DNA of 64,000 nt from Catellatospora bangladeshensis (GTDB lineage: Bacteria; Actinomycetota; Actinomycetes; Mycobacteriales; Micromonosporaceae): NCBI RefSeq assembly GCF_016862575.1, contig NZ_BONF01000052.1, forward strand, positions 1 through 64,000. Reading direction: 5' to 3'. Shown piece after piece: positions 22,170-59,778 of the stretch. Every line of letters begins with the position of its first letter. Within the stretch, counting starts at the first letter, position 1. A program made the position numbers and the translations under genes. The notes under the pieces are model-generated. The model saw nothing but the letters and a program-made list of their open reading frames with translations, was not told where the DNA came from and searched no databases.

Positions 22170-22232
22170 AGATCGCGGTCTCGTGTCGAAAAGTGCGCTT
22201 GGAGCCCACCTTTGGACACGAGACCGCGATCT
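22170..22232. repeat. intergenic palindrome, family 1, copy A
   Basis: Perfect 18-base arms AGATCGCGGTCTCGTGTC and its complement enclose 27 bases. The copy sits just after the MMPL gene. Confidence 0.85.
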
Positions 22233-22282
22233 CCGCGTGGCCGGTGGAGTCTCCCGGCGGCCAGGAGTGTCCGTCGCCCAGT

Positions 22283-22349
22283 GAAGATCGGCGGTTCGTG
22301 TCGAAAGGTGGGGCCAGACCGCAGGTTTCGACACGAGACCGCGATCTTC
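22283..22349. repeat. intergenic palindrome, family 1, copy B
   Basis: Arms GAAGATCGGCGGTTCGTGTC and GACACGAGACCGCGATCTTC are partly mismatched in the middle, but TCGAAA/TTTCGA extends the inner stem. It is about 50 bases from copy A. Confidence 0.8.
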
Positions 22350-22484
22350 GGAGGCAGAGGCCGCCGGGGAAGGGCCGGAAACCCTTGGTACACAAGGCGT
22401 TCACGCGAGCGCGGGCTGGATGACGTCCGCGGCCCCTAGCGTGCTCGATGTCACTCAAGACATCGACATGTGTGGAGGTCTACC

Positions 22485-23639
22485 GTGGATCGTCGTAACC
22501 TGCTGCGGGCCGGAGTCGTGGGCGGGGCCGCCGCCGCCTTCTCGGGCGCGCTGTGGAAGGAGGCGTTCGCCGCACCGGCGCAGCCGGGCCCGGGGCCGTA
22601 CGGCGCGCTCCAGGCCGCCGACGCGAACGGGATCATGCTGCCGTCCGGCTTCACCAGCCGGGTGATCGCCCGCACCGGCCAGACCGTGCCCGGCACCTCC
22701 TACACCTGGCACAGCGCACCGGACGGCGGCGCCTGCTTCGCCGACGGCTCGGGCTGGATTTACGTGTCGAACTCGGAGGTCTCCTCGGGCGGCGCGTCGG
22801 CGGTGCGGTTCAACTCGGGCGGGACGGTGACGGGGGCGTACCGCATCCTGTCCGGGACCTCGACGAACTGCGCCGGCGGGCACACCCCGTGGAACACCTG
22901 GCTGTCCTGCGAGGAGACGACCACCGGGCGGGTCTGGGAGACCGACCCGTGGGGCGTGAACGCGGCGGTCGCCCGGCCCGCGATGGGCCGGTTCAAGCAC
23001 GAGGCCGCCGCCTGCGACCCGGTCAACCACGTCATCTACCTGACCGAGGACCAGTCCGACGGCTGCTTCTACCGGTTCATCCCGAACACCTGGGGCAACC
23101 TGTCCGCCGGCACGCTGCAGGTGGCCAAGGGCGGCACGGGCACCGCGCTCACGCTGACCTGGGCGACCGTGCCCGACCCGGACGGCTCGCCGACCGCGAC
23201 CCGCAACCAGGTCAGCGGCGTGAAGCGGTTCAACGGTGGTGAGGGCTGCTGGTACGACAACGGCATCATCTACTTCACCACCAAGGGCGACAATCGAGTC
23301 TGGGCGTACAACACGGCCACCGCGTTCATCGAGCTGGCGTACGACGACTCGCTGGTGAGCGGCACGGCCCCGCTGACCGGGGTCGACAACATCACCGGCA
23401 GCGCCACCAGCGGCGACCTGTACGTCGCCGAGGACGGGGGCAACATGGAGATCTGCGTCATCACGCCGGACGACGTGATCGCGCCGTTCCTGCGCATCAC
23501 GGGGCAGGGCTCCTCGGAGATCACCGGCCCGGCGTTCAACCCGGCCGGGAACCGCTTCTACTTCTCCTCGCAGCGGGGCACCTCCGGCTCGTCGTCCGGC
23601 GGGATCACGTACGAGGTGACCGGGCCGTTCCGGTCCTGA
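22485..23639 (+). CDS. Tat-exported PhoX/DUF839 family phosphatase, paralog 1
   Basis: The 384-residue protein begins with a twin-arginine signal (DRRNLLRAGVVGGAAAAF). The mature part is of the PhoX/DUF839 beta-propeller type: ALQAADANGIMLPSGFTSR, TYTWHSAPDGGACFADGSGW, NTWLSCEETTTGRVWETDPW, GRFKHEAAACDP, YLTEDQSDGCFYRFIP, VAEDGGNMEICVI and FNPAGNRFYFSSQRG. PhoX enzymes are calcium/iron-dependent phosphatases of the cell exterior. This is shorter than typical PhoX, so a distinct activity is possible. The GTG is chosen because GGAGG lies six bases upstream; an ATG at 22470 lies before that site. It is directly followed by its paralog. Confidence 0.85.
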   Translation: MDRRNLLRAGVVGGAAAAFSGALWKEAFAAPAQPGPGPYGALQAADANGIMLPSGFTSRVIARTGQTVPGTSYTWHSAPDGGACFADGSGWIYVSNSEVSSGGASAVRFNSGGTVTGAYRILSGTSTNCAGGHTPWNTWLSCEETTTGRVWETDPWGVNAAVARPAMGRFKHEAAACDPVNHVIYLTEDQSDGCFYRFIPNTWGNLSAGTLQVAKGGTGTALTLTWATVPDPDGSPTATRNQVSGVKRFNGGEGCWYDNGIIYFTTKGDNRVWAYNTATAFIELAYDDSLVSGTAPLTGVDNITGSATSGDLYVAEDGGNMEICVITPDDVIAPFLRITGQGSSEITGPAFNPAGNRFYFSSQRGTSGSSSGGITYEVTGPFRS

Positions 23640-23655
23640 GCGCACAGGAGGCAGG

Positions 23656-24813
23656 ATGCGCCGTCGCGAGCTGCTGCGGGCCGGGCTGGCCGGTGCGGGC
23701 GCGGCGGCGCTGTCCGGGGTGCTGTGGCAGCGGGCGTTCGCGGCCACGGCGCTGCCCGGAGACTCGCCGTACGGCGCGCTGCGCCCGCCCGACACGAACG
23801 GCGTGGCGCTGCCGGACGGCTTCACCAGCCGGATCGTGGCCCGGTCCGGGCAGCCGGTGGGCGGCACCGGGTACACCTGGCACCGGGCGCCGGACGGCGG
23901 GGCCTGCTTCGCCGACGGCTCGGGCTGGATCTACGTGTCGAACTCGGAGATCCCCGTGGGTGGCGGCGCCTCGGCGGTGCGGTTCGCGGCGGACGGGTCG
24001 GTCGTGTCGGCGTACCGCATCCTGGCCCGGACCCGCGTGAACTGCGCGGGCGGGGCGACCCCCTGGCAGACCTGGCTGTCCTGCGAGGAGGTGTCCCACG
24101 GGCGGGTCTTCGAGACCGACCCGTGGGGGCGGCGGCCGGCGCCCGCGCGCCTGGCGATGGGCCGGTTCAAGCACGAGGCCGCCGCCTGCGACCCCGAACG
24201 GCGCGCCGTCTACCTCACCGAGGACGAGGAGGACGGCTGCCTCTACCGCTTCCTGCCGGAGACCTGGGGCGACCTGGAGCGGGGACGGCTGCAGGTGCTG
24301 TGCGCCCCGCCGGGCACCACCTCGGGGCCGGTGACCTGGCAGGACGTGCCCAGCCGGGACGGCGCCGGGGTGCCCACCCGGCGGCAGGTGCCCGCCGCGC
24401 TGCGCTTCGACGGTGGTGAGGGCTGCTGGTACGAGAGCGGCGTCTGCTACTTCACCACCAAGGGCGACGACCGGGTGTGGGCGTACGACGCGGCCGCCTC
24501 GGCGCTCGGCCTGGCCTACGACGCGGCGGCGGGCGGCACGCTGAGCGGCGTCGACAGCATCACCGGCGCGCCCCGCAACGCCGATCTGTTCGTCGCCGAG
24601 GACGGCGGCAACATGGAGATCAACGTGATCACGGCCGACGGCACGGTCGGCCCGTTCCTGCGGCTGCCCGGCCAGGACCGCTCGGAGATCACCGGGCCTG
24701 CCTTCAATCCGGCGGGCGACCGGCTCTACTTCTCGTCGCAGCGCGGCTACTCCGGCGCCCGCTCCGGCTCCGGCGGCATCACCTACGAGGTCACCGGCCC
24801 GTTCCGCGCCTGA
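23656..24813 (+). CDS. Tat-exported PhoX/DUF839 family phosphatase, paralog 2
   Basis: The 385-residue protein is a close paralog of the preceding gene along its whole length: RRRELLRAGLAGAGAAAL Tat signal, TYTWHRAPDGGACFADGSGW (here beginning GYTW), QTWLSCEEVSHGRVFETDPW, RFKHEAAACDPERRAVYLTE, FDGGEGCWYESG and VAEDGGNMEINVI. Only 16 bases separate the two genes, and CAGGAGGCAGG precedes the ATG, so they form an operon derived by tandem duplication. The role is extracellular phosphate or phosphoester use by family; the specific substrate is unknown. Confidence 0.85.
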   Translation: MRRRELLRAGLAGAGAAALSGVLWQRAFAATALPGDSPYGALRPPDTNGVALPDGFTSRIVARSGQPVGGTGYTWHRAPDGGACFADGSGWIYVSNSEIPVGGGASAVRFAADGSVVSAYRILARTRVNCAGGATPWQTWLSCEEVSHGRVFETDPWGRRPAPARLAMGRFKHEAAACDPERRAVYLTEDEEDGCLYRFLPETWGDLERGRLQVLCAPPGTTSGPVTWQDVPSRDGAGVPTRRQVPAALRFDGGEGCWYESGVCYFTTKGDDRVWAYDAAASALGLAYDAAAGGTLSGVDSITGAPRNADLFVAEDGGNMEINVITADGTVGPFLRLPGQDRSEITGPAFNPAGDRLYFSSQRGYSGARSGSGGITYEVTGPFRA

Positions 24814-24829
24814 GGCCCGATTTGTGCCG

Positions 24830-24858
24830 TTGACCGGCTGGTGGGCGGTCGGAATACT
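24830..24858 (+). promoter_or_regulatory. sigma-70-type promoter upstream of the mini-ORF and GNAT gene
   Basis: TTGACC and AATACT are separated by exactly 17 bases. The mini-ORF ATG begins six bases after the -10 hexamer, at or near the expected transcription start. Confidence 0.6.
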
Positions 24859-24864
24859 GCCCGG

Positions 24865-24957
24865 ATGCAGATCCACAGCGCGGACCTCGTCGAGGTGACC
24901 CGGGTGCGGGACCACGCCGGATTCCGCCAGGCGCCGCCGAACCCTGCGGAGGTCTGA
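24865..24957 (+). CDS. 30-aa probably leaderless ORF upstream of a GNAT gene
   Basis: The frame begins six bases after a good -10 hexamer and so probably at the 5' end of the mRNA. It encodes MQIHSADLVEVTRVRDHAGF plus ten residues and ends three bases before the acetyltransferase ATG. The downstream gene's Shine-Dalgarno GGAGG lies inside the last codons of this ORF. Ribosomes translating it would therefore reach the next start, which suggests coupling. No family is recognised; it could also be a remnant of a longer gene. Confidence 0.45.
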   Translation: MQIHSADLVEVTRVRDHAGFRQAPPNPAEV

Positions 24958-24960
24958 GCG

Positions 24961-25497
24961 ATGCGCCTGGAGACGGCCCGCCTGCTGGTGCGGGAGTGGA
25001 CCGACAGCCCCGCGGACCTGGACCGCAACTACGACACCTACCGGCGCGAGGAGGTGACGCGCTGGCTCGGCGCGGCCACCCCGCTGGTCAACCGGGAGCA
25101 GTCGCCGCTGCTGATGGATCGGCGCCGGGAGTACTACGCGGCCCACCCCGGCTACGGCGTCTGGGCCGTCGAGGTCCGTGCCACCGGCGTGGTCGCCGGA
25201 TCGGTGCTGCTCAAGGAGATGCCGATCCCGTCCGACGGGCCGGGCCGGGGCGAGATCGAGATCGGCTGGCACCTGCACCCGGACAGCTGGGGCCATGGGT
25301 ACGCCACCGAGGCGGCGCGCGCCGTGCTCGACCACGGCTGGGCGCTCGGGCTCACCGAGATCCACGCCATCGCCCGCCCCGACAACGCGCCGTCGCTGTC
25401 GGTGATGCGCCGCCTCGGCATGACCCGGGTGGGCCGCACCGACCGCTGGTACGACCTCGACGCCGAGCACTACATGATCACCAGGCCCGGCTGGTAG
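24961..25497 (+). CDS. GNAT family N-acetyltransferase (RimJ/RimL type)
   Basis: The 178-residue protein starts MRLETARLLVREWTDSPADL as in RimJ/RimL-type GNATs and has the acetyl-CoA-binding region IGWHLHPDSWGHGYATEAARA followed by IHAIARPDNAPSLSVMRRLG and the C-terminal MTRVGRTDRWYDL. The usual role is acetylation of a protein N-terminus or a small amine; the substrate cannot be told. The start follows GGAGGTCTGAGCG. It appears to be translated with the preceding 30-residue ORF. Confidence 0.9.
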   Translation: MRLETARLLVREWTDSPADLDRNYDTYRREEVTRWLGAATPLVNREQSPLLMDRRREYYAAHPGYGVWAVEVRATGVVAGSVLLKEMPIPSDGPGRGEIEIGWHLHPDSWGHGYATEAARAVLDHGWALGLTEIHAIARPDNAPSLSVMRRLGMTRVGRTDRWYDLDAEHYMITRPGW

Positions 25498-25508
25498 TGC
25501 ACTTTCCC

Positions 25509-25549
25509 GGAAACTGCACGAATGGCCCACCGCGATTCGTGCAGTTTCC
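25509..25549 (+). repeat. intergenic palindrome/terminator-like hairpin
   Basis: GGAAACTGCACGAAT and ATTCGTGCAGTTTCC form a perfect 15-base-pair stem with an 11-base loop just after the GNAT stop. It lacks a T-tract. It resembles the other dispersed palindromes in size but not in sequence. Confidence 0.7.
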
Positions 25550-25631
25550 CCGAAACAGCCTGCCGAAGGAGACGGCGCTCGATGAGTAGCCCGCTCAGCG
25601 GGCGTTCAGGGGGCTCGGCGAGAATGAGGCG

Positions 25632-26831
25632 ATGATCCCCCGCCAGATAGTTCTGCTCGGCTCCACCGGATCGATCGGCACCCAGGCGATCGACATCGTG
25701 CGGCGCAACCCGGACCGGTTCCGGGTGGTCGCGCTGGGCGCGGGCGGCGGCAACGTGGCGCTGCTGGCGCAGCAGGCGCTGGAGCTGGGGGTCGAGGCGG
25801 TCGGCGTGGCCAGGGCCAGCACCGCGCAGGACCTGCAGCTGGCGTTCTACGCCGAGGCGCAGCGGCGCGGCTGGTCGGCAGGGGAGTTCAAGCTCCCCAA
25901 GATCCTGGCCGGGCCGCAGGCGATGACGGAGCTGGCGCAGTGGCCCGCGGACATCGTGCTCAACGGCGTGGTGGGCTCGCTGGGCCTGGCGCCGACGCTG
26001 GCCGCGCTCAAGGCCGGGCGCATCCTGGCGCTGGCCAACAAGGAGTCGCTGGTCGCGGGCGGCCCGCTGGTGCGGGCGGTGGCCGCGCCGGGGCAGATCG
26101 TGCCGGTGGACAGCGAGCACTCGGCGCTGGCGCAGTGCCTGCGCGGCGGTGCGCAGTCCGAGGTGCGCAGGCTGATCCTGACGGCGAGCGGGGGCGCGTT
26201 CCGCGGCCGCCGCCGTGAGGAGCTGGGCGCGGTCACGGTCGAGGAGGCGCTCAAGCACCCGACCTGGGACATGGGCCCGGTGGTCACGATCAACTCGGCG
26301 ACGCTGGTGAACAAGGGCCTCGAGGTGATCGAGGCGCACGAGCTGTTCGGGGTGGCGTACGACGACATCGAGGTGATGGTGCACCCGCAGTCGGTGCTGC
26401 ACTCGCTGGTCGAGTTCACCGACGGCTCGACGCTGGCCCAGGCCAGCCCGCCGGACATGCGGCTGCCCATCGCGCTGGCGCTGGGCTGGCCGGACCGGGT
26501 GCCGTACGCGGCCGAGCCGGTCGACTGGACGCAGGCGCACAACTGGGAGCTGCGCCCGCTGGACCGGGAGGCGTTCCCGGCGGTGGAGCTGGCCAAGGCC
26601 GCGGGCCGGGCGGGGCGCTGCCGGCCGGCGATCTACAACGCCGCCAACGAGGAGTGTGTGGCGGCTTTCACAGCGGGTCGGCTACCGTTCCTGGCCATCG
26701 TCGACACCGTGGCGGAGATCGTCGACGGTGCGCCGGACTATGACGAACCGGGTACCGTCGAGGACGTGCTCGCCGCGGAGCACTGGGCGCGTACGCGCGC
26801 GCATGAACTGATCAAGGAGAAGAGCGCCTGA
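25632..26831 (+). CDS. dxr: 1-deoxy-D-xylulose 5-phosphate reductoisomerase
   Basis: DXR converts DXP to MEP, the committed step of the non-mevalonate isoprenoid pathway. The NADPH-binding [16 protein letters not shown] is at residues about 8-23. [69 protein letters not shown] and [14 protein letters not shown] contain the metal and substrate residues (Asp/Glu/Glu). Length 399 aa is usual. The ATG overlaps nothing upstream; its TGA shares an A with the ATG of the next gene. The dxr-rip-ispG order is the conserved actinobacterial cluster. Confidence 0.98.
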
Positions 26832-28048
26832 TGAGTGTGCTGGGCATCGTCCTGTTCGCGCTCGTGATCCTGATCTCGGTCAGCCTGCACGAGGCCGGCC
26901 ACATGGGCACCGCGAAGGCCTTCGGCATGCGGGTGACCCGCTACTTCGTGGGCTTCGGGCCGACCCTGTGGTCGTTCCGCCGCGGCGAGACCGAGTACGG
27001 CGTGAAGGGCATCCCGCTCGGCGGCTTCGTCAAGATCGTCGGCATGACGCCGCAGGACGAGGACGCCGACGACCCCAAGGCGATGTGGCGCTTCCCGGTA
27101 TGGAAGCGCTCGGTCGTCATGTCGGCGGGCTCGGTCGTGCACTTCATCCTGGCCGGCGTGGCCATCTGGCTGCTGGCGATCTTCTCCGGCCTGCCCAACC
27201 CGGCCCTGCCGAACGGCCCCGAGTCGCAGCCCGCGGTGCTCGCCGTGCAGCCCTGCGTGGTCAAGACGCTGCCGCTGCGCGAGTGCGCCGCGAACGACCC
27301 GGCCAGCCCGGCCTCGCAGGCGGGCCTGCGCGACGGCGACAAGCTGGTCGCGGTGAACGGCAAGCCGGTGGCGACCTGGGGCGAGGCGATCGAGCAGATC
27401 CGCCCGCTGGCCGTCGGGCAGACCGCCTCGATGACCGTGGAGCGCGATGGCGGTCAGCAGACCGTGCAGATCAGCCCGGCCGAGGTCGAGCGCAAGATGA
27501 CCGACGGCAGTGTGCGCAAGGTCGCCGCGATCGGCGTCGGCCTGACCTCGACCGTCCCTTACACCGTGACCTACGGCCCGGTCGATGCGGTCGGCGCGAG
27601 CGCGAAGTACGCCGGCTCGATGGTGACCGCCACGTTCGAGGCGCTCAAGCAGTTCCCGCAGCGCATCCCGGCGCTGTTCTCGGCGATCGGCGGCGCGGAG
27701 CGCGACCCGAACACCCCGATCAGCGTGGTCGGCATCAGCATCCTCGGCGGCGAGGCGGTCGAGCGCGGCGCGTGGGACATGTTCACCGCGCTGTTCATCG
27801 GATTCAACCTTTTCGTGGGTATTTTCAACCTGCTCCCGCTGCTTCCCCTCGACGGGGGACACCTGTTCATCGCGTGGTTCGAGAAGATTCGCTCATGGGT
27901 CTACGCTCGCCTGCACAAGCCCGACCCGGGCCGGGTCGACTACTTCAAGCTGATGCCGCTGACCTACACGGTCATCCTGATCTTCGGTGCGTTCACCCTG
28001 CTGACCGTCACCGCGGACCTCGTCAACCCCATCTCGATCTACAAGTGA
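26831..28048 (+). CDS. rip: site-2 intramembrane zinc metalloprotease (RseP/Rip family)
   Basis: The 405-residue membrane protease has the zinc motif HEAGH at residues 20-24 in the first helix and the second metal site [13 protein letters not shown] near the C-terminus. A PDZ domain lies between (about 150-225: [18 protein letters not shown]). In mycobacteria Rip1 cleaves anti-sigma factors and controls envelope composition, so the same is expected here. Its ATG shares an A with the dxr stop (TGATG), and ispG begins seven bases after its stop region. Confidence 0.96.
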
Positions 28049-28055
28049 GTGTGCT

Positions 28056-29222
<1,167 letters not shown>

Positions 29223-29235
29223 CCTTTCCCACTCA

Positions 29236-29276: not shown

Positions 29277-29310
29277 TCTGCCCCCTCGACCCGCGCCGCC
29301 AAGATCGCGT

Positions 29311-29379
29311 CGATCTTGCGCGAAGTGTTGCCCTTTTGGGCGGTAGGGGCGTGTCGTCCCCACCGTTCGCGCAAGATCG
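29311..29379. repeat. intergenic palindrome, family 2, copy 1
   Basis: CGATCTTGCGCGAA and TTCGCGCAAGATCG bound a 69-base element. The core contains TGTTGCCCTTTTG and GGGCGTGTCG. A second copy lies in the opposite orientation at 51154-51222. Confidence 0.85.
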
Positions 29380-29395
29380 GCGGGGTGGGTGGGGG

Positions 29396-31103: not shown

Positions 31104-31640
31104 GTGAACACCCCGATGGGGCGGATCGTAAAACAGCTCTCTGAAACCACCACGAAGTACTACTGGTATCCCGGAGAGAAGCAGGAGTGGATCCGCGCCG
31201 TCGTCGCCGTCAGCAGTGGAGCGGGTGCCGCGGCACTGCTGATGATGCTGACCCGCAACAGCCTCGCGGCCGTCGTGGTCGGATGCTCGGTCACCCTCGC
31301 GGTGTCCGGATTCAACTTCGGGCGGCGGGATGCCAAGGCGCTGGCCGGGTGGCCCAAGCTCAGTGACAAGGCCGCCCGGCGGGCCGCCGTCGCCCACAGC
31401 GGACGCGCCGCCTGGCGGGCGAGCGCGCACGGCGTCGGCGGGGCGGTCGCGGCGATCGTCGTACTCAACCTCACCCACAGCGGCTGGGTCGCCGACTGGC
31501 TGCTGCCCGTCGTGCCCGCCGTGGTCGGGGCGCTCGCCCACCAGACCGGGATGGTCTGGGAGCAGCTCGCCAGCACCGTGGCCACCACCGGCCCCGCCGC
31601 CGCCCCCGCCACCCCCGCCGCCAAACCCACCGCCGACTGA
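31104..31640 (+). CDS. membrane protein of unknown function
   Basis: The 178-residue protein is not recognised. It begins VNTPMGRIVKQLSETTTKYY and has about four hydrophobic segments (AVSSGAGAAALLMML, AAVVVGCSVTLAVSG, GGAVAAIVVLNL, WLLPVVPAVVGALA), with a cationic loop between the second and third (about 80-115). The C-terminus is Ala/Pro/Thr-rich. A palindromic site precedes the GTG and two family 1 repeats follow. The context gives no function. Confidence 0.7.
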   Translation: MNTPMGRIVKQLSETTTKYYWYPGEKQEWIRAVVAVSSGAGAAALLMMLTRNSLAAVVVGCSVTLAVSGFNFGRRDAKALAGWPKLSDKAARRAAVAHSGRAAWRASAHGVGGAVAAIVVLNLTHSGWVADWLLPVVPAVVGALAHQTGMVWEQLASTVATTGPAAAPATPAAKPTAD

Positions 31641-31685: not shown

Positions 31686-31746
31686 GATCGCGAGTTCGTG
31701 TCGGAAAGTGTGGTCTGGCCATAGGTTTCGACACGAACTGGCGATC
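31686..31746. repeat. intergenic palindrome, family 1, copy C
   Basis: Left arm GATCGCGAGTTCGTGTCGG and right arm GACACGAACTGGCGATC with inner GAAA/TTTC. It lies about 45 bases after the membrane protein gene. Confidence 0.85.
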
Positions 31747-31777: not shown

Positions 31778-31842
31778 AAGATCGCGGTTTCGTGTCCAAA
31801 GGTGCGGCCTGGCCTAACGTTTGGACACGAAACGCCGATCTT
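31778..31842. repeat. intergenic palindrome, family 1, copy D
   Basis: AAGATCGCGGTTTCGTGTCC and GGACACGAAACGCCGATCTT bound a 65-base element next to copy C and about 60 bases before the convergent oxidase gene. Confidence 0.85.
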
Positions 31843-39851: not shown

Positions 39852-39902
39852 GGAAGGGCACCTTCTTAACGGATTCCGTAGAGGAAGGTGCCCTTATTAA
39901 CG
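39850..39902. repeat. intergenic palindrome, family 3, copy 1
   Basis: AAGGGCACCTTC and GAAGGTGCCCTT form the arms, with TTAACG after each half. It overlaps the stop region of the VIT1 gene. Copy 2 lies inverted at 40550-40602. Confidence 0.85.
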
Positions 39903-40449: not shown

Positions 40450-40514
40450 TTGATCGCGAGTTCGTGTCAAGATCTGCGGTCCAGCTGCACTTTTGGACAC
40501 GAACTCGCGATCAA
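40450..40514. repeat. intergenic palindrome, family 1, copy E
   Basis: Perfect 19-base arms TTGATCGCGAGTTCGTGTC and its complement enclose 27 bases. It is upstream of the nitroreductase gene. Confidence 0.88.
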
Positions 40515-40549: not shown

Positions 40550-40602
40550 GTTAAGAAGGGCACCTTCCTCTACGCATAGCGTTAAGAAGGTGCCCTTCCT
40601 TT
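40550..40602. repeat. intergenic palindrome, family 3, copy 2 (inverted)
   Basis: GTTAAGAAGGGCACCTTCCT and AAGAAGGTGCCCTTCCTTTC contain the arms. Its reverse complement matches copy 1 over most of its length, including TAGAGGAAGGTGCCCTT. It abuts the ABC permease stop. Confidence 0.85.
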
Positions 40603-52767: not shown

Positions 52768-53250
52768 ATGGCTGATCCGGCCAAGGTACGCAAGCATGCC
52801 GAGCGGGTGCGTGAGCTCGTGGCATCGGCGGTACGTTCCCAGATCAAGGACCCCCGGCTCGGGATGATCACCATCACCGACGCGCGGATCACCGCCGACC
52901 TGCGCGAGGCAACGGTCTTCTACACGGTGCTCGGCGACGCGGAGGCCCAGGCGGGCACCGCCGCCGCGCTGGAGAGCGCCAAGGGCATGCTGCGCGGCGT
53001 GGTCGGCCGGGCCCTCGGCCTGCGCCACTCGCCGTCCCTGGCGTTCGTCTCCGACGACGTCCAGGAGCACGTCAAGCACATCGACGACCTGCTCGCCGAG
53101 GCGAAGCAGCGCGACGCCCAGGTGCAGGAGCTGGCCGCGGGCGCGGAGTACGCCGGCGACGCGCAGCCGTACAAGGTCGAGGACGACGAGGACGCGCAGG
53201 ACGAAGACGACGAGGAGGAGCCTGCGCTGCGCGCGGCAGCCCAGGCGTGA
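52768..53250 (+). CDS. rbfA: 30S ribosome-binding factor A
   Basis: The 160-residue protein has the RbfA KH-like core: ADPAKVRKHAERVRELVASA, DPRLGMITITDARITADLRE, TVFYTVLGD and RHSPSLAFVSDDVQEHVKHI. It assists 16S rRNA maturation. The last 35 residues are acidic (DDEDAQDEDDEEEPALRA). GGAGG lies seven bases before the ATG. Its stop overlaps the GTG of the DHH gene. Confidence 0.95.
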   Translation: MADPAKVRKHAERVRELVASAVRSQIKDPRLGMITITDARITADLREATVFYTVLGDAEAQAGTAAALESAKGMLRGVVGRALGLRHSPSLAFVSDDVQEHVKHIDDLLAEAKQRDAQVQELAAGAEYAGDAQPYKVEDDEDAQDEDDEEEPALRAAAQA

Positions 53251-54281
53251 ACGCGGCGACGCTGGCGGCCGGGACCACCGGCCGCCCCACCGAGCAGGAC
53301 TGGGCCGCGGCCGTCGCGGCCGTGCGCACCGGGCTGCGTCCCGGCGCGCGGGTGCTGCTGGTTTGCCACGTCAACCCCGACGGCGACGCGCTGGGCAGCA
53401 TGCTCGGCTTCGCGCAGGGCCTGCTCCGGCTCGGCGTCACCTCGCTGCAGTGCACCTTCCCGGGCCCGCTGAGCGTGCCCGCGCCGCTGCACATGCCCGC
53501 GATGGACCTGCTCATCCCGGAGGCCGACGCCGACCCCGCGCCGGACCTGCTGGTGACCTTCGACGCGGCCAGCGAGTCGCGGCTCGGGTCGCTGGTGGAC
53601 CGGCTGGAGACGGCCACGGTCAGCCTGGTGCTCGACCACCACGCGTCGAACACCGGCTTCGGCAAGGTGTCGCTGGTCGACCCGTACGCCGCGGCCACCT
53701 CGGTGGTCGCCGCCGAGATGCTGCGGCGGCTGGACGTGCCGCTGGACCGGCCCATGGCCGAGTGCCTCTACATCGCGCTGGTCACCGACACCGGCTCGTT
53801 CAAGTTCGACCTGACCACGCCCGAGGTGCACGAGCTGGCCGCGCGCCTGGTCGCCACCGGCATCGACGTCGGCGGCATCTCCCGGCGCATCTTCGACAGC
53901 CGCCCGTTCGGCGCGGTGCGCCTGTTCGGCGAGGTCATGGGCCGGGCCCAGCTGGAGCCCGAGGGCGCCGGCGGGCGCGGCCTGGTGTACGCCGTGGCCA
54001 CGCTCGACGATTTGGCCAAGCACGAGCAGCCTCCGTACGTGCTGGAGGCGCTGATCGACTCGGTGCGCTGCGTCTCCGAGGCGGACGTGGCGCTGCTGCT
54101 CAAGCAGGTCGCGCCGCAGGAGTGGGCGGTGTCCATGCGGAGCAAGGGCGGCGCGGACGTCAGCCGGGTCGCGGTCGCGCTCGGCGGGGGCGGGCACCGG
54201 CTGGCCGCCGGGTTCACCGGCCGGGGCGGCGCGGAGGAGATCATCGCGGCGGTGCGCGCGGAGCTGGCGGCGCAGGGCTGA
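53247..54281 (+). CDS. DHH/DHHA1 phosphoesterase, NrnA/RecJ-like (bifunctional oligoribonuclease/PAP phosphatase)
   Basis: The 344-residue protein has DHH motifs: CHVNPDGDALGS near 40, FDAAS near 105, LDHHASNTG near 130 and TDTGSFKFDLT near 175, then the DHHA1 motif SKGGADVSRVAVALGGGGHR with AAGFT. NrnA-type enzymes degrade short oligonucleotides and hydrolyse pAp. The GTG overlaps the rbfA stop, in the conserved rbfA-nrnA arrangement of actinobacteria. The first 25 residues are an extension without family similarity. Confidence 0.93.
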   Translation: MNAATLAAGTTGRPTEQDWAAAVAAVRTGLRPGARVLLVCHVNPDGDALGSMLGFAQGLLRLGVTSLQCTFPGPLSVPAPLHMPAMDLLIPEADADPAPDLLVTFDAASESRLGSLVDRLETATVSLVLDHHASNTGFGKVSLVDPYAAATSVVAAEMLRRLDVPLDRPMAECLYIALVTDTGSFKFDLTTPEVHELAARLVATGIDVGGISRRIFDSRPFGAVRLFGEVMGRAQLEPEGAGGRGLVYAVATLDDLAKHEQPPYVLEALIDSVRCVSEADVALLLKQVAPQEWAVSMRSKGGADVSRVAVALGGGGHRLAAGFTGRGGAEEIIAAVRAELAAQG

Positions 54282-54371
54282 CGGGCGGCCGGTTCGCCCC
54301 ATCGGCGGCGCGGCCGGAGCAGGGTGGCGAAGGTCTCCCGCGCAGACCGGTCAACGGAGCACAATCGGGTC

Positions 54372-54779
54372 ATGGAACAGCGTCCCGAGCTCACCGTCGA
54401 GCCGGTGCGCCCGTGGGCGCGCGCACAGGTCATGCTGCCGGTGTTCGTGCCGTTCTCGCTGATCGGCGGGTTGCTGCCGTCGTTCTCGCTGGCGGCGAAT
54501 CTTTACGTGCTCGCGCTGGGCGGGGGCATGATGCTGGCGGGGATGTCGTCGCGGCTGCCGCGCCGGGCCGCGCCGTCGGGGCTGCTGCCTGGGGTGGCGT
54601 GGTGGCTGGTGCCGGTGGCGGTGTTCGTGGTGGTCGAGGTGATCACGTTCGCGATGGGGTCCACGCACGATTACCCGACGCTGTCGTTGCTGGCCGATCC
54701 GCTGCTTGACGGGTATCTGGTGCGGAGTCTGGCGTACTTCGGGTGGCTGGCCGGGTTCTGGGGGCTGGTGCGGCGGTGA
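54372..54779 (+). CDS. small membrane protein of unknown function
   Basis: The 135-residue protein begins MEQRPELTVEPVRPWARAQV and has four hydrophobic segments (VMLPVFVPFSLIGGLLPSF, LYVLALGGGMMLAGM, VAWWLVPVAVFVVVEVITF and SLAYFGWLAGFWGL). I do not recognise the family with confidence. CACAAT lies six bases before the ATG, suggesting a leaderless start. Its stop overlaps the GTG of the next small membrane protein, so the two are co-translated. Confidence 0.7.
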   Translation: MEQRPELTVEPVRPWARAQVMLPVFVPFSLIGGLLPSFSLAANLYVLALGGGMMLAGMSSRLPRRAAPSGLLPGVAWWLVPVAVFVVVEVITFAMGSTHDYPTLSLLADPLLDGYLVRSLAYFGWLAGFWGLVRR

Positions 54780-54994
54780 GTTTGACTCGGTTTCTTGCGA
54801 TCGCCGGGTTCGTGCTGGCGGGGGTGGCGGTGCTGGCGGTGGAGTGGGCGGCGCGGCGGCCGGGGTCTCGGGTGCCGTCGATCGGCGACGTAGCGGCGCT
54901 GGTCATGCGGTATGACGTGGGCGGGCTGCCGGTGGGGCGGCTGGCGATCCTGGGGTTCTGGTTCTGGTTGGGGTGGCACTTTCTGGCTCGGTGA
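54776..54994 (+). CDS. 72-aa membrane protein (DUF6186-like)
   Basis: The protein begins VSLTRFLAIAGFVLAGVAVL, has an Arg-rich turn (EWAARRPGSRVPSIGDVAAL) and a second hydrophobic helix ending LAILGFWFWLGWHFLAR. It resembles a small actinobacterial family sometimes annotated DUF6186; this assignment is tentative. The GTG overlaps the preceding stop. Nothing else suggests a function. Confidence 0.6.
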   Translation: MSLTRFLAIAGFVLAGVAVLAVEWAARRPGSRVPSIGDVAALVMRYDVGGLPVGRLAILGFWFWLGWHFLAR

Positions 54995-55044
54995 GCCTCT
55001 GGGCGTGGTGGCGTTCCTTGGCTGGCGAGATGGGGGGTGGGCAT

Positions 55045-55105
55045 GATCGCGGGTTCGTGTCCAAACCTCGGGCTGGGCCACACGTTCTGACACGAGACGG
55101 CGATC
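55045..55105. repeat. intergenic palindrome, family 1, copy F
   Basis: GATCGCGGGTTCGTGTC and GACACGAGACGGCGATC are the arms of a 61-base element after the 72-residue membrane protein gene. Confidence 0.85.
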
Positions 55106-55157
55106 TTGCCCCTGTCGGCGCGGCTGGGGGTTGGCGTGGTGGGGCTTGTGCGGTGGC

Positions 55158-55224
55158 CATGATCGCGGGTTCGTGTCCAAAGGTGGGGCTGGGGCGCAGG
55201 TTTGGACACGAGACGGCGATCATG
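55158..55224. repeat. intergenic palindrome, family 1, copy G
   Basis: CATGATCGCGGGTTCGTGTC and GACACGAGACGGCGATCATG with inner CAAA/TTTG form the arms. It is about 50 bases from copy F and in the same arrangement as pairs A-B and C-D. Confidence 0.87.
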
Positions 55225-55535
55225 CCCGCCCTACCCTGGAGCTGAGCGGAGATTCAGGGGGAGATATCCGACTTGTTGCGCGTTAAGGAGCGGTTTAGCA
55301 GGTCAGTCGGCATGCTGACGTTCCAGGTCGTGGGAACGGCTGTGCAGGATGTGGAACTGAACGATAGTTTTGCCTGCAGCGGCGCGCTTCGCGGTCCCAC
55401 CCGGACGGCGGCGCCGCGGTAGGTCACACCGGCGAGGATGCTCGGCGATCCCGAGAACGGCGGCGGACAGAGGAAACGCGGCACGTGTTCGGCGTGCGTG
55501 CGTCATCGACCCGTTGTTGTGGAAGGACCGTTCCC

Positions 55536-55637
55536 ATGCCTACGTCCAAGAAGCCCCAGCCGCAGACCACCGAGGAAGACCGCGAGCGCGAGCAGGCCCG
55601 CCGCGCGCTGCAGACCTCCATGGACACCCGGCAGTAG
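55536..55637 (+). CDS. 33-aa basic/acidic small protein
   Basis: The frame starts ATG after GTGGAAGGACCGTTCCC and encodes MPTSKKPQPQTTEEDREREQ and a further 13 residues ending DTRQ. Nearly every codon ends in G or C, as in real genes here, so it is probably translated. The sequence is hydrophilic and helical, like many short actinobacterial proteins of unknown role. No family is recognised and no partner is obvious. Confidence 0.5.
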   Translation: MPTSKKPQPQTTEEDREREQARRALQTSMDTRQ

Positions 55638-55702
55638 TCCGTTCGGCCGCCCCGCCCGAGCGGGGCACCCGGCGGGATGATCGTTGCGTCTACGCTGTCG
55701 GG

Positions 55703-56470
55703 ATGTCCTCGACAGCCGCGCCCGCGGCACCCGCCGACGGCGATCTGCTGCGTCACCTGGCGTCGCAGAACCGCAGGCTGCTCGTCGCGGCCTGGGCCGT
55801 GGGCGGCGCCGGGCTGATCATCACGGCCGCGGTCGCCGGTGTCCCGGGTCCGGGGTGGGTCTGGCGGACAGTGTCCGCGCTGGCCGCCCTGGCGACGCTG
55901 GTCGTCTACTTCGGTGCGGTCCACCTGCTGTGGCGGGTGCGCCGACCGGCGGCGCTGGCGCCGGTGACCCTGCCGCAGGGGTTCGCCGCGTTCACCTCGC
56001 CCGTCGTGTACGCCCGCGGCACCCTGGCGCTGGCCGGGGCCGGGTTCGCGCTCGGCGGCGGCCAGCCGCTCACCGCGAGCGCGCTGGTGGTGCTGGCGGC
56101 GCTGCTCATTCATCACCCTCCCCGCCTGCTGGTGACGCCCGGCGGGGTGTCGGTGCGCGGGCTGCGCACCCGTACGGTGCCCTGGGCGCGGCTCACCGGG
56201 GTGCAGGTCCGCCCGCGTGGTGGAGTGGCCGAGCTGTCGCTGTGGACCGAGCCGGCGACCGGGCCGAGCGGCGTGCTGCGCGTGACTCTTCCCAAGTTCG
56301 ACGTCGACCGGGAGTTCCTGGTGCGGCTGCTCCAGCACTACCGGGCCGTGCCCGAGGACCGAACGGCGATCGGCGCGCCCGCGGAGCTGGCCCGCCGCCG
56401 TGCCGCCGTGCCGCCACCCTCCGACGAGCTGGACGAGGATCTGGACGACCTCCTGGACGGGCAGCCGTGA
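55703..56470 (+). CDS. membrane protein with a C-terminal PH-like domain
   Basis: The 255-residue protein has four hydrophobic helices (AAWAVGGAGLIITAAVAGV, TVSALAALATLVVYFGAVHLL, RGTLALAGAGFALGGG and ALVVLAALLIHH) and a C-terminal beta-rich segment (PRLLVTPGGVSVRGLRTRTV, ARLTGVQVRPRG) of the bacterial PH type, ending in an acidic tail (DELDEDLDDLLDG). TACGCT lies six bases before the ATG. Its role is unknown. Confidence 0.75.
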   Translation: MSSTAAPAAPADGDLLRHLASQNRRLLVAAWAVGGAGLIITAAVAGVPGPGWVWRTVSALAALATLVVYFGAVHLLWRVRRPAALAPVTLPQGFAAFTSPVVYARGTLALAGAGFALGGGQPLTASALVVLAALLIHHPPRLLVTPGGVSVRGLRTRTVPWARLTGVQVRPRGGVAELSLWTEPATGPSGVLRVTLPKFDVDREFLVRLLQHYRAVPEDRTAIGAPAELARRRAAVPPPSDELDEDLDDLLDGQP

Positions 56471-56483
56471 CGGGGGAGCGGCC

Positions 56484-57824
56484 GTGACGGCCGTGCGGGA
56501 GCGCGCCGCGGCGAGCGGATACCGCAGGATCGCGGCGCTGGCCCTGCCCGCGCTGGTCGTGCTGGCCGCCGAGCCGCTGTACGTGCTCGTCGACACCGCC
56601 GTGGTGGGACACCTGGGCCGGGTGCCGCTGGCGGCGCTGGGCCTGGCCGGGACGGTGCTGGGGCTGGCCGTATGGCTCGGCAACGTGCTCGCGTACGGCA
56701 CCACGGGCCGCGCGGCGCGGCGCTTCGGCGCGGGTGACCGGGCGGGGGCGGTCGGCGAGGGGGTGCAGGCGTCCTGGCTGGCGGGCCTGGCCGGGCTGGC
56801 GCTGGTGCTGGCGGCGCAGCTGTTCGCCGGGCCGCTGGCGAGGGCGCTGTCCGGCAACGGGCCGGAGTCGGCGGCGGTGGCCGCGCAGGCCGAGCTGTGG
56901 CTGCGGGTGGCCTGCCTCGGCGCGCCGTTCATCCTGCTCGCGATGGCGGGCAACGGGTGGATGCGGGGCGTGCAGGACACCCGCCGCCCGCTCTACTACG
57001 TGCTCGGCGCCAACCTCGCCTCGGCCGTGCTGTGCCCGCTGCTGGTGTACGGGCTCGGCTGGGGCATGGTCGGCTCCGCCTGGGCGAACGTGGCCGCGCA
57101 GGCCGCGTCCGGCGGCCTGTTCCTGCGCGCGCTGTGGCGTGAGCGGGTGCCGCTGAGCCCGGACTGGGCCGTGCTGCGCCGCCAGCTCTCCGTCAACGGG
57201 GCGCTGCTGGTGCGGGGTGCGGCGTTCCAGGCGTGCTTCCTGTCCGCGGCGGCGGTGGCGGCCCGGTTCGGCGCGGCGGCGCTGGCCGCGCACCAGATCG
57301 CGCTGCAGCTGTGGTTCTTCAGCGCGCTGGTGCTCGACTCGGTGGCCATCGCGGCGCAGTCGCTGGTCGGCGCGGAGCTGGGCGCGGGCGACCCGGCCGC
57401 GGCGAAGGCGACCGCGCGGCGGATCACCTGGCTCGGCGGCTGGTGCGGGGTGGCCTTCGCGGTGGTGCTGGGCGCGAGCGTCACGGTGCTGCCCGCGCTG
57501 TTCGTCGACGATCCCGCGGTATGGGAGCAGGCGGCGCTGATCTGGCCGTGGTTCGCCGTGCTGCTGCCGATGGGCGGGATCGTGTTCGCGCTCGACGGGG
57601 TGCTCATCGGCGCGGGCGACGTGGCGTACCTGCGCAATCTGACCATCGTCGCGGCCGTGGTGGGCTTCCTGCCGGCGACCTGGCTCGCGTACGCCCTCGA
57701 CCTGGGCCTGACCGGGGTGTGGGCGGGGCTGACCCTGTTCATCGTGGTCCGGCTGGTGGCGCTGCTGCTGCGGATGCGGACCGGCGGCTGGGCCGTGCCC
57801 AGCCCGGCGCCCCGGCCCGCCTAG
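56484..57824 (+). CDS. MATE family multidrug/metabolite exporter (DinF type)
   Basis: The 446-residue protein has about twelve hydrophobic helices and MATE features: LALPALVVLAAEPLYVLVDT, AVVGHLGRVPLAALGLAGTV, GTTGRAARRFGAGDRAGA in the first half and ALAAHQIALQLWFFSALVLD with AAQSLVGAELGAGD in the second. MATE proteins export drugs or metabolites with Na+ or H+. The GTG follows GGGGGAGCGGCC. It lies upstream of truB as in other actinobacteria (DinF-like). Substrate unknown. Confidence 0.93.
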   Translation: MTAVRERAAASGYRRIAALALPALVVLAAEPLYVLVDTAVVGHLGRVPLAALGLAGTVLGLAVWLGNVLAYGTTGRAARRFGAGDRAGAVGEGVQASWLAGLAGLALVLAAQLFAGPLARALSGNGPESAAVAAQAELWLRVACLGAPFILLAMAGNGWMRGVQDTRRPLYYVLGANLASAVLCPLLVYGLGWGMVGSAWANVAAQAASGGLFLRALWRERVPLSPDWAVLRRQLSVNGALLVRGAAFQACFLSAAAVAARFGAAALAAHQIALQLWFFSALVLDSVAIAAQSLVGAELGAGDPAAAKATARRITWLGGWCGVAFAVVLGASVTVLPALFVDDPAVWEQAALIWPWFAVLLPMGGIVFALDGVLIGAGDVAYLRNLTIVAAVVGFLPATWLAYALDLGLTGVWAGLTLFIVVRLVALLLRMRTGGWAVPSPAPRPA

Positions 57825-57875
57825 GCTGGACGTCGGCGCGCGCCCGACCCACGGCGCAGCGGGGCGAGGAGAAGC

Positions 57876-58784
57876 GTGAGCAGCAGGAAGAACGACCGCC
57901 CGGTGACCGACGGGCTGATCGTGGTGGACAAGGCCGGCGGCATGACCTCGCACGACGTGGTCGCGCGGGTGCGCCGCATCGCCGGCACCCGCAAGGTCGG
58001 CCACGGCGGCACGCTGGACCCGATGGCGACCGGCGTGCTCGTGCTCGGCGTCGGCCGGGCCACCCGCCTGCTCACCTACGTCGTGGGCACCGACAAGGTC
58101 TACCGGGGCACCATCCGGCTGGGGCAGGCCACGGTCACCGACGACGCCGAGGGCGACGTCACCGCGAGCACGCCCGCGGGCCACGTCACCGACGAGCAGA
58201 TCCGGGCCGGGCTGGCCGCGCTGACCGGCGAGGTCGACCAGGTGCCGTCCGCGGTCAGCGCCATCAAGATCAACGGAGTGCGCTCCTACCACCGGGTCCG
58301 CCAGGGCGAGCAGGTCGAGCTGCCCGCGCGCCGGGTGACGATCTCCCGGATCGACGTGTCGGGGATCACCCGGCAGGACGACGTGGTCGACGTCGAGGTG
58401 GAGGTCGCCTGCTCGTCGGGCACCTACATCCGGGCGATCGCCCGCGACCTGGGCACCGCGCTGGGTGTCGGTGGTCACCTCACCGCGCTCCGGCGCACCG
58501 CCGTGGGCGGGTTCACCCTCGCCGAGGCGTACCCCCTCGAAAAGCTCGCGGACCTCGCCGACCCGGTGGCGCTGCCGCTCGCGCAGGCCCTGGGCCGCGC
58601 CATGCCGATCCGCACCGTCGACGCGGACGCGGCGAAGATCGTGTCCCACGGCGGGCCGCTGCCCGCCGTCGGCCAGGCCGGGCCGTACGGTGTGGTGGGT
58701 CCGGACGGGGCCGCGCTCGCCGTCATGTCCGAGCGCGGCGGCCGGGCCAAGGCGGAGATCGTCCTGGTGGGAGGCGAGCAGTGA
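57876..58784 (+). CDS. truB: tRNA pseudouridine-55 synthase
   Basis: The 302-residue enzyme has DGLIVVDKAGGMTSHDVVAR, the catalytic Asp in VGHGGTLDPMATG (about 42-54, D48), YRGTIRLGQATVTDDAEGD, PSAVSAIKINGVRSYHRVR and CSSGTYIRAIARDLG. The C-terminal part is the TruB_C_2-type domain. It makes psi-55 in the tRNA T arm. GAGGAGAAGC precedes the GTG. The stop overlaps the ribF start. Confidence 0.97.
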   Translation: MSSRKNDRPVTDGLIVVDKAGGMTSHDVVARVRRIAGTRKVGHGGTLDPMATGVLVLGVGRATRLLTYVVGTDKVYRGTIRLGQATVTDDAEGDVTASTPAGHVTDEQIRAGLAALTGEVDQVPSAVSAIKINGVRSYHRVRQGEQVELPARRVTISRIDVSGITRQDDVVDVEVEVACSSGTYIRAIARDLGTALGVGGHLTALRRTAVGGFTLAEAYPLEKLADLADPVALPLAQALGRAMPIRTVDADAAKIVSHGGPLPAVGQAGPYGVVGPDGAALAVMSERGGRAKAEIVLVGGEQ

Positions 58785-59719
58785 TGCAGCGCTGGCGGGG
58801 GTACGACGCGGCGCCCGGCGGGTGGGGCCGGTCCGTGGTGACCATCGGCGTCTTCGACGGTGTGCACACCGGGCACCAGCAGACCATCGGCCACACCGTG
58901 AAGCGCGCCCGGGAGCTGGGCCTGCCCGCCGTCGTGCTGACCTTCGACCCGCACCCGTCCGAGGTGGTGCGGCCCGGCTCGCACCCCGCCGTGCTCACCT
59001 CGCCGCTGCGCAAGGCCGAGCTGATCGAGGGCCTGGGCGTGGACGTGCTGTGCGTGCAGCCGTTCACGCTGGAGTTCTCGAAGCTCGACGCCGACCGGTT
59101 CGTGCACGACGTGCTCGTCGAGCACCTGCACGCGGCGCTGGTCGTGGTCGGGGAGAACTTCCGCTTCGGCCACAAGGCCGCCGGTGACGTGGAGCTGCTC
59201 GCCCGGCTCGGGCGCACGTTCGGGTTCGCCGTGGAGTCCGCGCCGCTGGTCAGCGGGGATGGGACGATCTTCTCGTCGACGTACGTGCGGGCCTGCGTGG
59301 ACGCCGGGGACATCGAGACGGCCGCGGCGGTGCTGGGGCGGCCCCACCGGCTGGAGGGCGTCGTGGTCCGCGGCGACCAGCGCGGGCGCGAGATCGGCTT
59401 CCCGACGGCGAACCTGATGGTGGCCAAGTACGCCGCCGTGCCCGCGGACGGGGTCTACGCGGCCTGGCTGGTGCGCGGCAACGACCGGCTGCCCGCCGCG
59501 GTGTCGATCGGCACCAATCCCACGTTCTCCGGGCAGGAGCGCCGGGTCGAGGCGTACGTGCTCGACTTCACCGGCGACCTGTACGGCGAGCGGCTGGCCC
59601 TGGACTTCGTCAGCCACCTCCGGCCGACGCTCAAGTTCGACGGCATCCCCGCGCTGGTGGAGGCCATCGAGGACGACGTCGCCCGCACGCGCGCGGTCCT
59701 GGGCGTCCCCGCGCGATGA
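58784..59719 (+). CDS. ribF: bifunctional riboflavin kinase/FAD synthetase
   Basis: The 311-residue protein has the nucleotidyltransferase N-terminus (VVTIGVFDGVHTGHQQTIGH, VLTFDPHPSEV, VVVGENFRFGHKAAGD, FSSTYVRACVDAGD) and the C-terminal riboflavin-kinase domain (VVVRGDQRGREIGFPTANLM, ADGVYAAW, SIGTNPTFSG, RLALDFVSHLRPTLKF). It makes FMN and FAD. ATG at 58784 shares its A with the truB stop; a GTG one codon upstream also overlaps and is possible. A family 1 palindrome abuts its stop. Confidence 0.97.
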   Translation: MQRWRGYDAAPGGWGRSVVTIGVFDGVHTGHQQTIGHTVKRARELGLPAVVLTFDPHPSEVVRPGSHPAVLTSPLRKAELIEGLGVDVLCVQPFTLEFSKLDADRFVHDVLVEHLHAALVVVGENFRFGHKAAGDVELLARLGRTFGFAVESAPLVSGDGTIFSSTYVRACVDAGDIETAAAVLGRPHRLEGVVVRGDQRGREIGFPTANLMVAKYAAVPADGVYAAWLVRGNDRLPAAVSIGTNPTFSGQERRVEAYVLDFTGDLYGERLALDFVSHLRPTLKFDGIPALVEAIEDDVARTRAVLGVPAR

Positions 59720-59778
59720 TCGGTGATTCGTGTCAAGATCTGCGGTCTGGCCGCACTTTCTGACACGAACCGGCGATC
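59718..59778. repeat. intergenic palindrome, family 1, copy H
   Basis: GATCGGTGATTCGTGTCA and TGACACGAACCGGCGATC form the arms. The left arm begins inside the ribF stop codon. Confidence 0.85.

What the first reader, a model, noticed from the sequence alone, without database searches (positions are those of the whole stretch)
22170..59778. Family 1: eight intergenic palindromes with GATCGCG..TTCGTGTC arms
Copies at 22170, 22283, 31686, 31778, 40450, 55045, 55158 and 59718 share outer arms and a semi-conserved inner AAAG..CTTT boundary. Six of the eight occur as close pairs about 30-50 bases apart. They resemble REP/BIME or MITE-like elements and are not explained by transcription terminators alone.
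Basis: seen in the sequence. Interest (0 to 1): 0.75.

Follow-up and report, generated by a model that had tools for sequence, protein, structure and literature searches.

The report
Helically phased 61-bp palindromes at gene ends
A soil actinomycete genome carries hundreds of 61-letter DNA palindromes at gene ends, and close neighbours, even of two different kinds, sit near a whole number of DNA helix turns apart, which points to protein docking sites on one face of the DNA rather than ordinary jumping repeats or transcription stops.

Summary
The eight copies are real, each exactly 61 bp (GATCGC-N4-TCGTGTC-N27-GACACGA-N4-GCGATC), and belong to a family with 278 copies in this Catellatospora genome and 274 in its closest relative. 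Under this consensus it is nearly confined to the genus (one hit in 113 other family genomes). Copies lie at gene 3' ends: 87 of 200 scorable sites between convergent genes, 12 between divergent. It is not a RAYT-type REP: no Y1 transposase in the own genome, no GTAG/CGTC tag. Termination fits poorly: no T-tract, and the inner stem pairs no better than chance in the two high-copy species. The surprise is spacing: the 55 exact-arm pairs within 69-129 bp cluster at 81-83, 94-95, 103-108, 113-116, 125-127, a helical ladder. All 45 exact-arm junctions with an unrelated palindrome family within 63.5-123.5 bp follow it; unique hairpins do not. Best reading: double-stranded-DNA docking sites for an unknown protein system at transcription-unit ends, rapidly gained and lost, at rearrangement hot spots. 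The protein is unidentified; phased insertion by an unknown enzyme remains possible.

The parts
22171..22231 (.). F1 palindrome, 61 bp, first of a pair (115 bp start to start)
   Evidence: palindrome in the orthologous slot of G007, G006, G001, G002, G005, G010, not of G003; flanks not found for G004, G008, G009
22286..22346 (.). F1 palindrome, second of the pair; absent in G007
31686..31746 (.). F1 palindrome, first of a pair (94 bp)
31780..31840 (.). F1 palindrome, second of the pair; pair kept at 94 bp in G007
40452..40512 (.). F1 palindrome, single, phased with the FA palindrome (centre to centre 94.5 bp; 93.5 in G007)
40556..40597 (.). FA palindrome (AAGGGCACCTT-N20-AAGGTGCCCTT core), different family, phase partner of the F1 at 40452
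55045..55105 (.). F1 palindrome, first of a pair (116 bp); one copy only in G007
55161..55221 (.). F1 palindrome, second of the pair
59718..59778 (.). F1 palindrome overlapping the stop codon of the upstream gene (called at 58781-59719)

Best explanation
F1 is a largely genus-restricted, high-copy, 61-bp palindromic docking site in double-stranded DNA, placed at gene 3' ends, above all between convergent genes. A dimeric protein (not identified) reads two 30-bp half-sites, consensus GATCGC-N-R-N-Y-TCGTGTC-N-R-AA-N-S-TG-N-GG-Y-Y. Where a second F1 or an FA palindrome lies within about 80-127 bp, the two dyads are kept near a whole number of helical turns apart (8-12 turns), so that the bound complexes stand on the same face and can touch or bend the DNA in one plane. 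The likely role is a nucleoprotein anchor, insulator or roadblock between transcription units. Shown: copy number, rigid length, location, phasing with itself and with FA, phase mostly retained in the ortholog pairs compared, and no excess pairing of the inner stem in the two high-copy species. Inferred: the protein, the same-face contact, and the anchoring or insulating role.
For: Spacing: 55 junctions with exact arms in G000 (32) and G007 (23), searched over 69-129 bp, fall at 81-83 (3), 94-95 (11), 103-108 (29), 113-116 (8), 125-127 (4), none elsewhere; R(10.5)=0.86; the best R over periods 9.5-11.5 was reached by 0 of 20,000 uniform draws. F1-FA: 45 of 45 exact-arm junctions, searched over 63.5-123.5 bp in 11 genomes, at 81.5-83.5 (11), 91.5-95.5 (21), 103.5-104.5 (7), 113.5-115.5 (4), 121.5-123.5 (2, at the edge of the range); 38 are from G000 and G007, 7 from five other species; 15 spacer clusters, R=0.876, 0 of 50,000. 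Negative control: F1 to unique hairpins, n=19 under 135 bp, R(10.5)=0.29. Orthologs: 94 v 116 bp, the spacer being 22 bp longer through an internal repeat; 104 v 105 with unrelated spacers (F). Position: 101 co-directional, 87 convergent, 12 divergent against background gaps of 800, 239, 340. Half-site logic: blocks 22-23 and 24-30 pair no better than reshuffled half-sites in G000 and G007 (z -2.5 to -0.7). No TTTT at 352 of 354 ends.
Against: No binding protein was found; I ran no search for one for want of a candidate. The arms do covary: blocks 6-10 (z 4.5 in G000, 5.8 in G007) and 18-19 (z 2.5, 4.8). In 46 copies pooled from nine other species covariation is strong, also at inner positions 22-23 (z 4.0, 4.8; mixed subfamilies), though weak there within G001 and G006 alone (z 1.6, 1.5). 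Other species switch CGTGTC to CGGGTC in both arms. All this fits a hairpin or templated correction. F1-F1 exact-arm pairs were found only in the two sister species (0 in the other nine). A looser local scan of F1-FA also holds off-grid or far pairs (71.5, 119.5, 128.5, 129.5, 132.5, 137.5, 159.5) and gives a lower R of 0.62 for 20 under 131 bp (8 of 20,000 draws), so phasing may fade beyond about 115 bp. F1-F1 spacings of 108, 110 and 113 are off the grid; one ortholog pair is 125 v 113. Conserved blocks inside F1 show only a weak period near 11-12 bp. F1-F2 is not significant. Single sites are dispensable: the 31640 slot is 11 bp and empty in G010.
Confidence: 0.45

Rival explanations
1. Mobile palindromes with phased insertion: F1 (and the FB, FC, F2, F5 families) are non-autonomous mobile elements moved by an unknown enzyme that, when it sits on a resident palindrome, inserts the new copy on the same helical face. 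Phasing is then a birthmark, not a function.
For: A G007-only stretch of about 120 bp carrying F1 at the 12280 slot, absent from G000 and from the eight other relatives that could be compared; G005 could not. The 31640 slot holds F1, FC, FB plus F5, F5 alone or nothing in different species (by eye). Copy number under one consensus ranges from 3 to 278 among 11 species. F1-bearing intergenic regions break synteny with G007 in 9 of 16 cases against 3 of 81 without any family; one of those 3 is the 12280 slot, where G007 has the F1.
Against: No precise 61-bp insertion with a target duplication was seen. The single/pair differences examined mostly look like arm-to-arm recombination. Phase is mostly kept when the spacer changes.
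Confidence: 0.27
2. Hairpin acting in RNA: bidirectional intrinsic terminators or 3'-end mRNA stabilisers.
For: Position at gene 3' ends and between convergent genes; all eight window copies are predicted to fold as RNA (-28.1 to -43.2 kcal/mol); outer arms covary, and in nine other species pooled also positions 22-23.
Against: TTTT within 10 nt of an end in 2 of 354 ends. Real copies are only slightly more stable than left/right hybrids (-34.3 v -32.6 in G000, -35.7 v -32.8 in G007; z -1.6, -2.8). Inner stem pairing is at chance in G000 and G007. RNA hairpins have no reason to be phased at 10.5 bp, nor to keep one exact length.
Confidence: 0.13
3. REP/REPIN elements mobilised by a RAYT-type Y1 transposase.
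For: High copy, extragenic, palindromic, in pairs and in one tandem array.
Against: No Y1_Tnp in G000. Y1 genes in 6 of 11 genus genomes; the four loci read have a tnpB-like neighbour (by eye) and no F1. No GTAG or CGTC tag at the ends. Published REPs are described as small, 20-40 bp (start of the abstract of PMC3733652).
Confidence: 0.07
4. Mutational by-product: pairs arise by tandem duplication or slippage with a preferred unit length, and arm pairing is restored by template switching.
For: Members of 40 pairs are more alike in direct orientation (47.0 of 61) than random copies (43.9) or than in inverted orientation (43.0). A 126-bp tandem array with homologous spacers exists in G000 C67.
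Against: F1-F1 spacers mostly match neither flank. F1-FA phasing cannot come from tandem duplication.
Confidence: 0.08

Closest known systems
REP / BIME (E. coli-type repetitive extragenic palindromes and mosaic elements)
   Same: High copy, extragenic, pairs and mixed arrays; [quoted passage not shown]
   Different: 61 bp rather than 20-40 bp, rigid length including the loop, no GTAG/CGTC tag, no RAYT in the genome, and a 10.5-bp series of spacings that also holds with a second palindrome family.
REPIN (Pseudomonas REP doublets)
   Same: Doublets with preferred distances (71 and 110 bp; passages of PMC3116915).
   Different: REPIN doublets are described there as rarely mixed, inverted and hairpin-forming as a unit; here neighbours lean to direct orientation, F1-F1 spacers are mostly unrelated (36 of 40 kept after removal of similar ones), distances form a helical ladder and mixed F1-FA pairs obey it.
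GTAG/CGTC-tagged REP dimers
   Same: Dimers with spacers of mostly 20-100 bp, some differing in sequence but similar in length (passages of PMC3733652).
   Different: In that paper's main text the terms 'helical', 'actinobacter' and 'micromonospor' occur 0 times; no ladder in the passages seen.
Phased operator pairs (lac, gal type DNA loops)
   Same: Palindromic sites separated by integer helical turns (recalled knowledge, no call).
   Different: Those are one or a few loci under one regulator in promoters (recalled); here dozens of loci, mostly at gene 3' ends, with two different palindromes.
Palindromic MITE
   Same: Two inverted arms abutting, hundreds of copies.
   Different: No clear target duplication; diverse copies of invariant length; a parent transposon was not searched for beyond Y1_Tnp.

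Membership tests
REP with RAYT | RAYT (Y1_Tnp) gene in the genome | tested here: not met
   0 matches in G000; the control search rings in 5 of 14 named genomes
REP with RAYT | transposase gene flanked by the palindromes | tested here: not met
   0 F1 sites (up to 6 mismatches) in loci L243-L246, about 1.5 kb each side of four of the nine Y1 matches; a tnpB-like gene (by eye) beside each
REP with RAYT | GTAG or CGTC tag at one end, size 20-40 bp | tested here: not met
   ends are mostly (A/T)(A/T)GATC, length 61; tag and size from the title, passages and start of the abstract of PMC3733652
REP/BIME (descriptive sense) | high-copy extragenic palindrome, in mosaics | tested here: met
   278 copies; 4 of 213 overlap a called gene; mixed pairs with FA and F2
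MITE | target-site duplication | tested here: inconclusive
   flanking dinucleotides AA/TT 45, AT/TT 33, AT/AT 32 of 177; the one gain allele is not a clean 61-bp insertion
MITE | autonomous parent transposon with the same ends | not tested
   no search for one was made beyond Y1_Tnp
intrinsic terminator | hairpin followed by T-tract | tested here: not met
   TTTT in 2 of 354 ends
known structured RNA | Rfam match | tested here: not met
   only Actino-pnp at 60359-60416 in the window at gathering scores
protein-binding operator array | two-fold half-sites, invariant length, helical phasing of neighbours | tested here: met
protein-binding operator array | demonstrated binding protein | not testable with these tools
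   needs pull-down or ChIP

The most novel reading that the evidence does not exclude
Several unrelated palindrome families of these genomes (F1, FA and perhaps F2) are docking modules of one chromosome-architecture system whose only shared rule is geometric: dyads must lie an integer number of helical turns apart, so complexes of different sequence specificity assemble on one face at transcription-unit ends.
Probability: 0.22. Interest if true: 0.88.

Novelty: new variant of a known kind. Interest (0 to 1): 0.68.

Why it matters
Whether interspersed bacterial palindromes are selfish, structural or functional is still argued. A 10.5-bp ladder between copies, and between two palindrome families, is a signature of double-stranded DNA assembly that can be read from sequence alone and tested by inserting 5 or 10 bp. 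If it holds, it gives a way to tell protein docking arrays from mobile hairpins in other genomes and points to an undescribed nucleoprotein system at gene ends in these actinomycetes.

Tried and rejected
RAYT: searched in G000 and the genus, rejected. Rfam: no match at the palindromes. Virus origin: 0 exact matches in viral contigs. Precise insertion alleles: the pairs at 22171/22286 and 55045/55161 are single in G007, but the single allele combines the flanks of both copies, so collapse by recombination is likelier than insertion. Period inside the element: no strong 10.5-bp signal in the information profile. F1-F2 spacing: only 6 independent pairs, R=0.63, not significant. F1 to unique hairpins: not phased. 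My first gene caller picked antisense frames and was retrained. Literature: ten searches; no listed title or start of abstract describes this family or helical phasing of palindromic repeats. Of the listed papers I looked only at found passages of three; none was read whole, and the papers listed were not opened.
Full report
What is there. Each of the eight reported palindromes is exactly 61 bp with the plan GATCGC-N4-TCGTGTC-N27-GACACGA-N4-GCGATC (some copies differ at a few of these positions), usually bounded by AA, AT or TT. Scans of shuffled and reversed sequence give none. With up to 3 mismatches in 24 fixed positions there are 278 copies in this genome (G000, 8.83 Mb) and 274, 126, 100, 73, 47, 38, 8, 7, 6 and 3 in ten congeners, with 0 in the reversed control of every genome. 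A pattern whose two arm spacers were each one base short, used by mistake, found none in the 11 genus genomes and one chance-like place in one other genome of 200. With the correct pattern, 8 genus genomes and 1 of 113 other family genomes match, the latter once. A covariance model gave two hits in one genome of another genus and none in 29 further genomes of the family and order. The consensus undercounts distant congeners, whose copies carry changed arms such as TTCGGGTC..GACCCGAA.

Where it sits. I called genes with a home-made GC3 scheme. Of 213 sites with up to 4 mismatches in the fetched loci (most loci chosen around known sites; members of pairs and orthologs counted singly), 101 lie between co-directional genes, 87 between convergent, 12 between divergent; 9 are at locus edges and 4 overlap a called gene. 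The background of all called gaps of at least 65 bp is 800, 239 and 340.

Phasing with itself. In the window the pairs are 115, 94 and 116 bp apart. A junction search over all 11 genomes for spacings of 69-129 bp with exact arms found 32 pairs in G000 and 23 in G007, none in the other nine and none in the control. The spacings are 81 (2), 83 (1), 94 (10), 95 (1), 103-106 (28), 108 (1), 113 (1), 115-116 (7), 125-127 (4); R at 10.5 bp is 0.86 and none of 20,000 uniform draws reached the observed best. In a scan of the fetched loci (overlapping with those pairs), removal of similar spacers left 36 of 40, of which 34 under 131 bp give R=0.865. That scan also holds one pair at 110 bp and two at 157 and 159.

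Phasing with a second family. FA (AAGGGCACCTT-N20-AAGGTGCCCTT core) has a fixed length: N20 in 78 of 79 in an open scan. 38 are from G000 and G007; the 7 from G001, G002, G003, G006 and G010 lie at 81.5, 82.5, 93.5 (4) and 123.5. Collapsed to 15 spacer clusters by a deliberately greedy rule (24 of the 45 fall in one cluster; some are clearly related), R=0.876 and 0 of 50,000 draws reach it; the mean phase is -1.05 bp for F1-FA and -0.35 bp for F1-F1 relative to whole turns. A looser local scan is less clean: 23 independent distances, 20 under 131 bp with R=0.62 (8 of 20,000), including 71.5, 119.5, 128.5 and 129.5, and beyond that 132.5, 137.5 and 159.5. So the ladder is sharp up to about 115 bp and uncertain further out. 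Unique hairpins near F1 are not phased (19 under 135 bp, R=0.29), and 6 F1-F2 pairs are too few.

Evolution. G007 is about 94-98% identical to G000 in the large aligned blocks of the window region. Six of the eight window copies have a G007 counterpart; 22286 and 55045 do not, and there the single G007 copy carries one copy's left flank and the other's right flank, as arm-to-arm recombination would leave it. Other single/pair comparisons look alike. F1-bearing intergenic regions break alignment with G007 in 9 of 16 cases, other-family regions in 2 of 14, regions without any family in 3 of 81 (F1 v none, Fisher p=1.4e-6; region length was not controlled, and one of the 3 has an F1 in G007). Gain also occurs: at 12280 G007 alone has about 120 extra bp carrying F1; eight other relatives and G000 lack it, G005 could not be compared. 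At 31640 the same slot holds an F1 pair, an F1 with switched arms, FC, FB with F5, F5 alone, or 11 bp of nothing in different species (families assigned by eye). Pairs present in both species mostly keep phase: 94 and 94 (31686), 94 and 94 (C44, matched by spacer likeness), 94 and 116 with a spacer 22 bp longer through an internal repeat, 104 and 105 with unrelated spacers, 104 and 106 (by spacer likeness), F1-FA 94.5 and 93.5. Less tidy: 125 and 113, and a triple with 110+105 in G000 and 105+105 in G007, where the off-grid G000 neighbour is a degenerate copy.

Hairpin or double strand. If RNA or single-strand hairpins were selected, both arms should covary throughout. In G000 and G007 they covary at half-site positions 6-10 (z 4.5, 5.8) and 18-19 (z 2.5, 4.8), but positions 22-23 and 24-30 pair at or below the level of reshuffled half-sites. 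Against this, 46 copies pooled from nine other species covary also at 11-14 and 22-23 (z 2.9-5.7 and 4.0-4.8); the pool mixes species and subfamilies, and within G001 and G006 alone the 22-23 signal is weak (z 1.6, 1.5). Folding energies of real copies exceed those of left/right hybrids only slightly. In G001 copies with one TTCGTGTC arm and one TTCGGGTC arm occur (4 of 25), i.e. half-sites can be mixed, although matched arms are in excess there (z 3.2 for block 11-17). I read this as a two-fold protein site, with partial palindrome correction or hairpin involvement in the outer arms not excluded.

Mechanism and rivals. The best-supported reading is a docking site for an unidentified dimeric protein at transcription-unit ends, whose close neighbours are held on one helical face; function as anchor, insulator or roadblock is inference. 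The strongest rival is a mobile palindrome whose insertion is guided by a resident palindrome on the same face. The present data separate them only partly: retention of phase when spacers change favours selection, rapid turnover favours a birth process. REP/RAYT membership fails on the tested features. Terminator membership fails on the T-tract.

Novelty. Interspersed palindromes are a known kind. In the passages I saw, REPIN doublets have preferred distances of 71 and 110 bp and are rarely mixed (PMC3116915), and REP dimers have spacers of mostly 20-100 bp, some alike in length only (PMC3733652); the word 'helical' occurs 0 times in the main text of either paper or of PMC2817692. No title or start of abstract listed by the ten searches named in Tried and rejected describes this family. 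The library lacks most subscription journals.

Noticed in passing
window 29312-29378 and L051:13653, L088:2874, L099:8242 and others: Family F2: 67-bp core (up to 85 bp) palindrome GATCTTGCGCGAA..TTCGCGCAAGATC with an asymmetric inner part, 67 bp in 35 of 35 matches (some stretches may be counted twice); left flanks C-rich, right flanks G-rich after symmetrising.
   Followed up: partly
window 39854-39895 and 40556-40597; many loci: Family FA, about 54-bp palindrome GTTAAGAAGGGCACCTTC..GAAGGTGCCCTTCTTAAC, 79 copies in the fetched loci of 10 of 11 genomes.
   Followed up: yes
L093:8462, L107:3510, L104:17120, L072:911: Further palindrome families of nearly fixed length: FB (CGACTTGCC.GGCA), FC (GCAGTTTC.GGGAAACTGC), F5 (GATCATGAA.TTA) and F3 (GATCCGTTTTTGTGGAC), several ending in GATC.
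   Followed up: partly
L052:9130-10110 (G007): An insertion sequence with a transposase-like ORF of 283 aa (recognised by eye, recalled IS5-like) sits inside the loop of the FA palindrome orthologous to window 40556, with TAA on both sides.
   Followed up: no
L053:13147-14538 (G007): A Fic-like gene (HPFADGNGR motif, recalled) lies in G007 between the gene ending at window 59719 and the F1 palindrome of window 59718.
   Followed up: no
L242:7105-7544 (G000 C67:22105-22544): Four F1 copies about 126 bp apart, with homologous spacers, near the contig end, plus the start of a fifth.
   Followed up: partly
window 22485-24813: Two tandem paralogous genes, 73-78% identical in DNA in the aligned blocks (D3-D6; gene calls).
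   Followed up: no
window 60359-60416: Actino-pnp cis-regulatory RNA, 70.3 bits, upstream of the ORF at 60473-62800.
   Followed up: no
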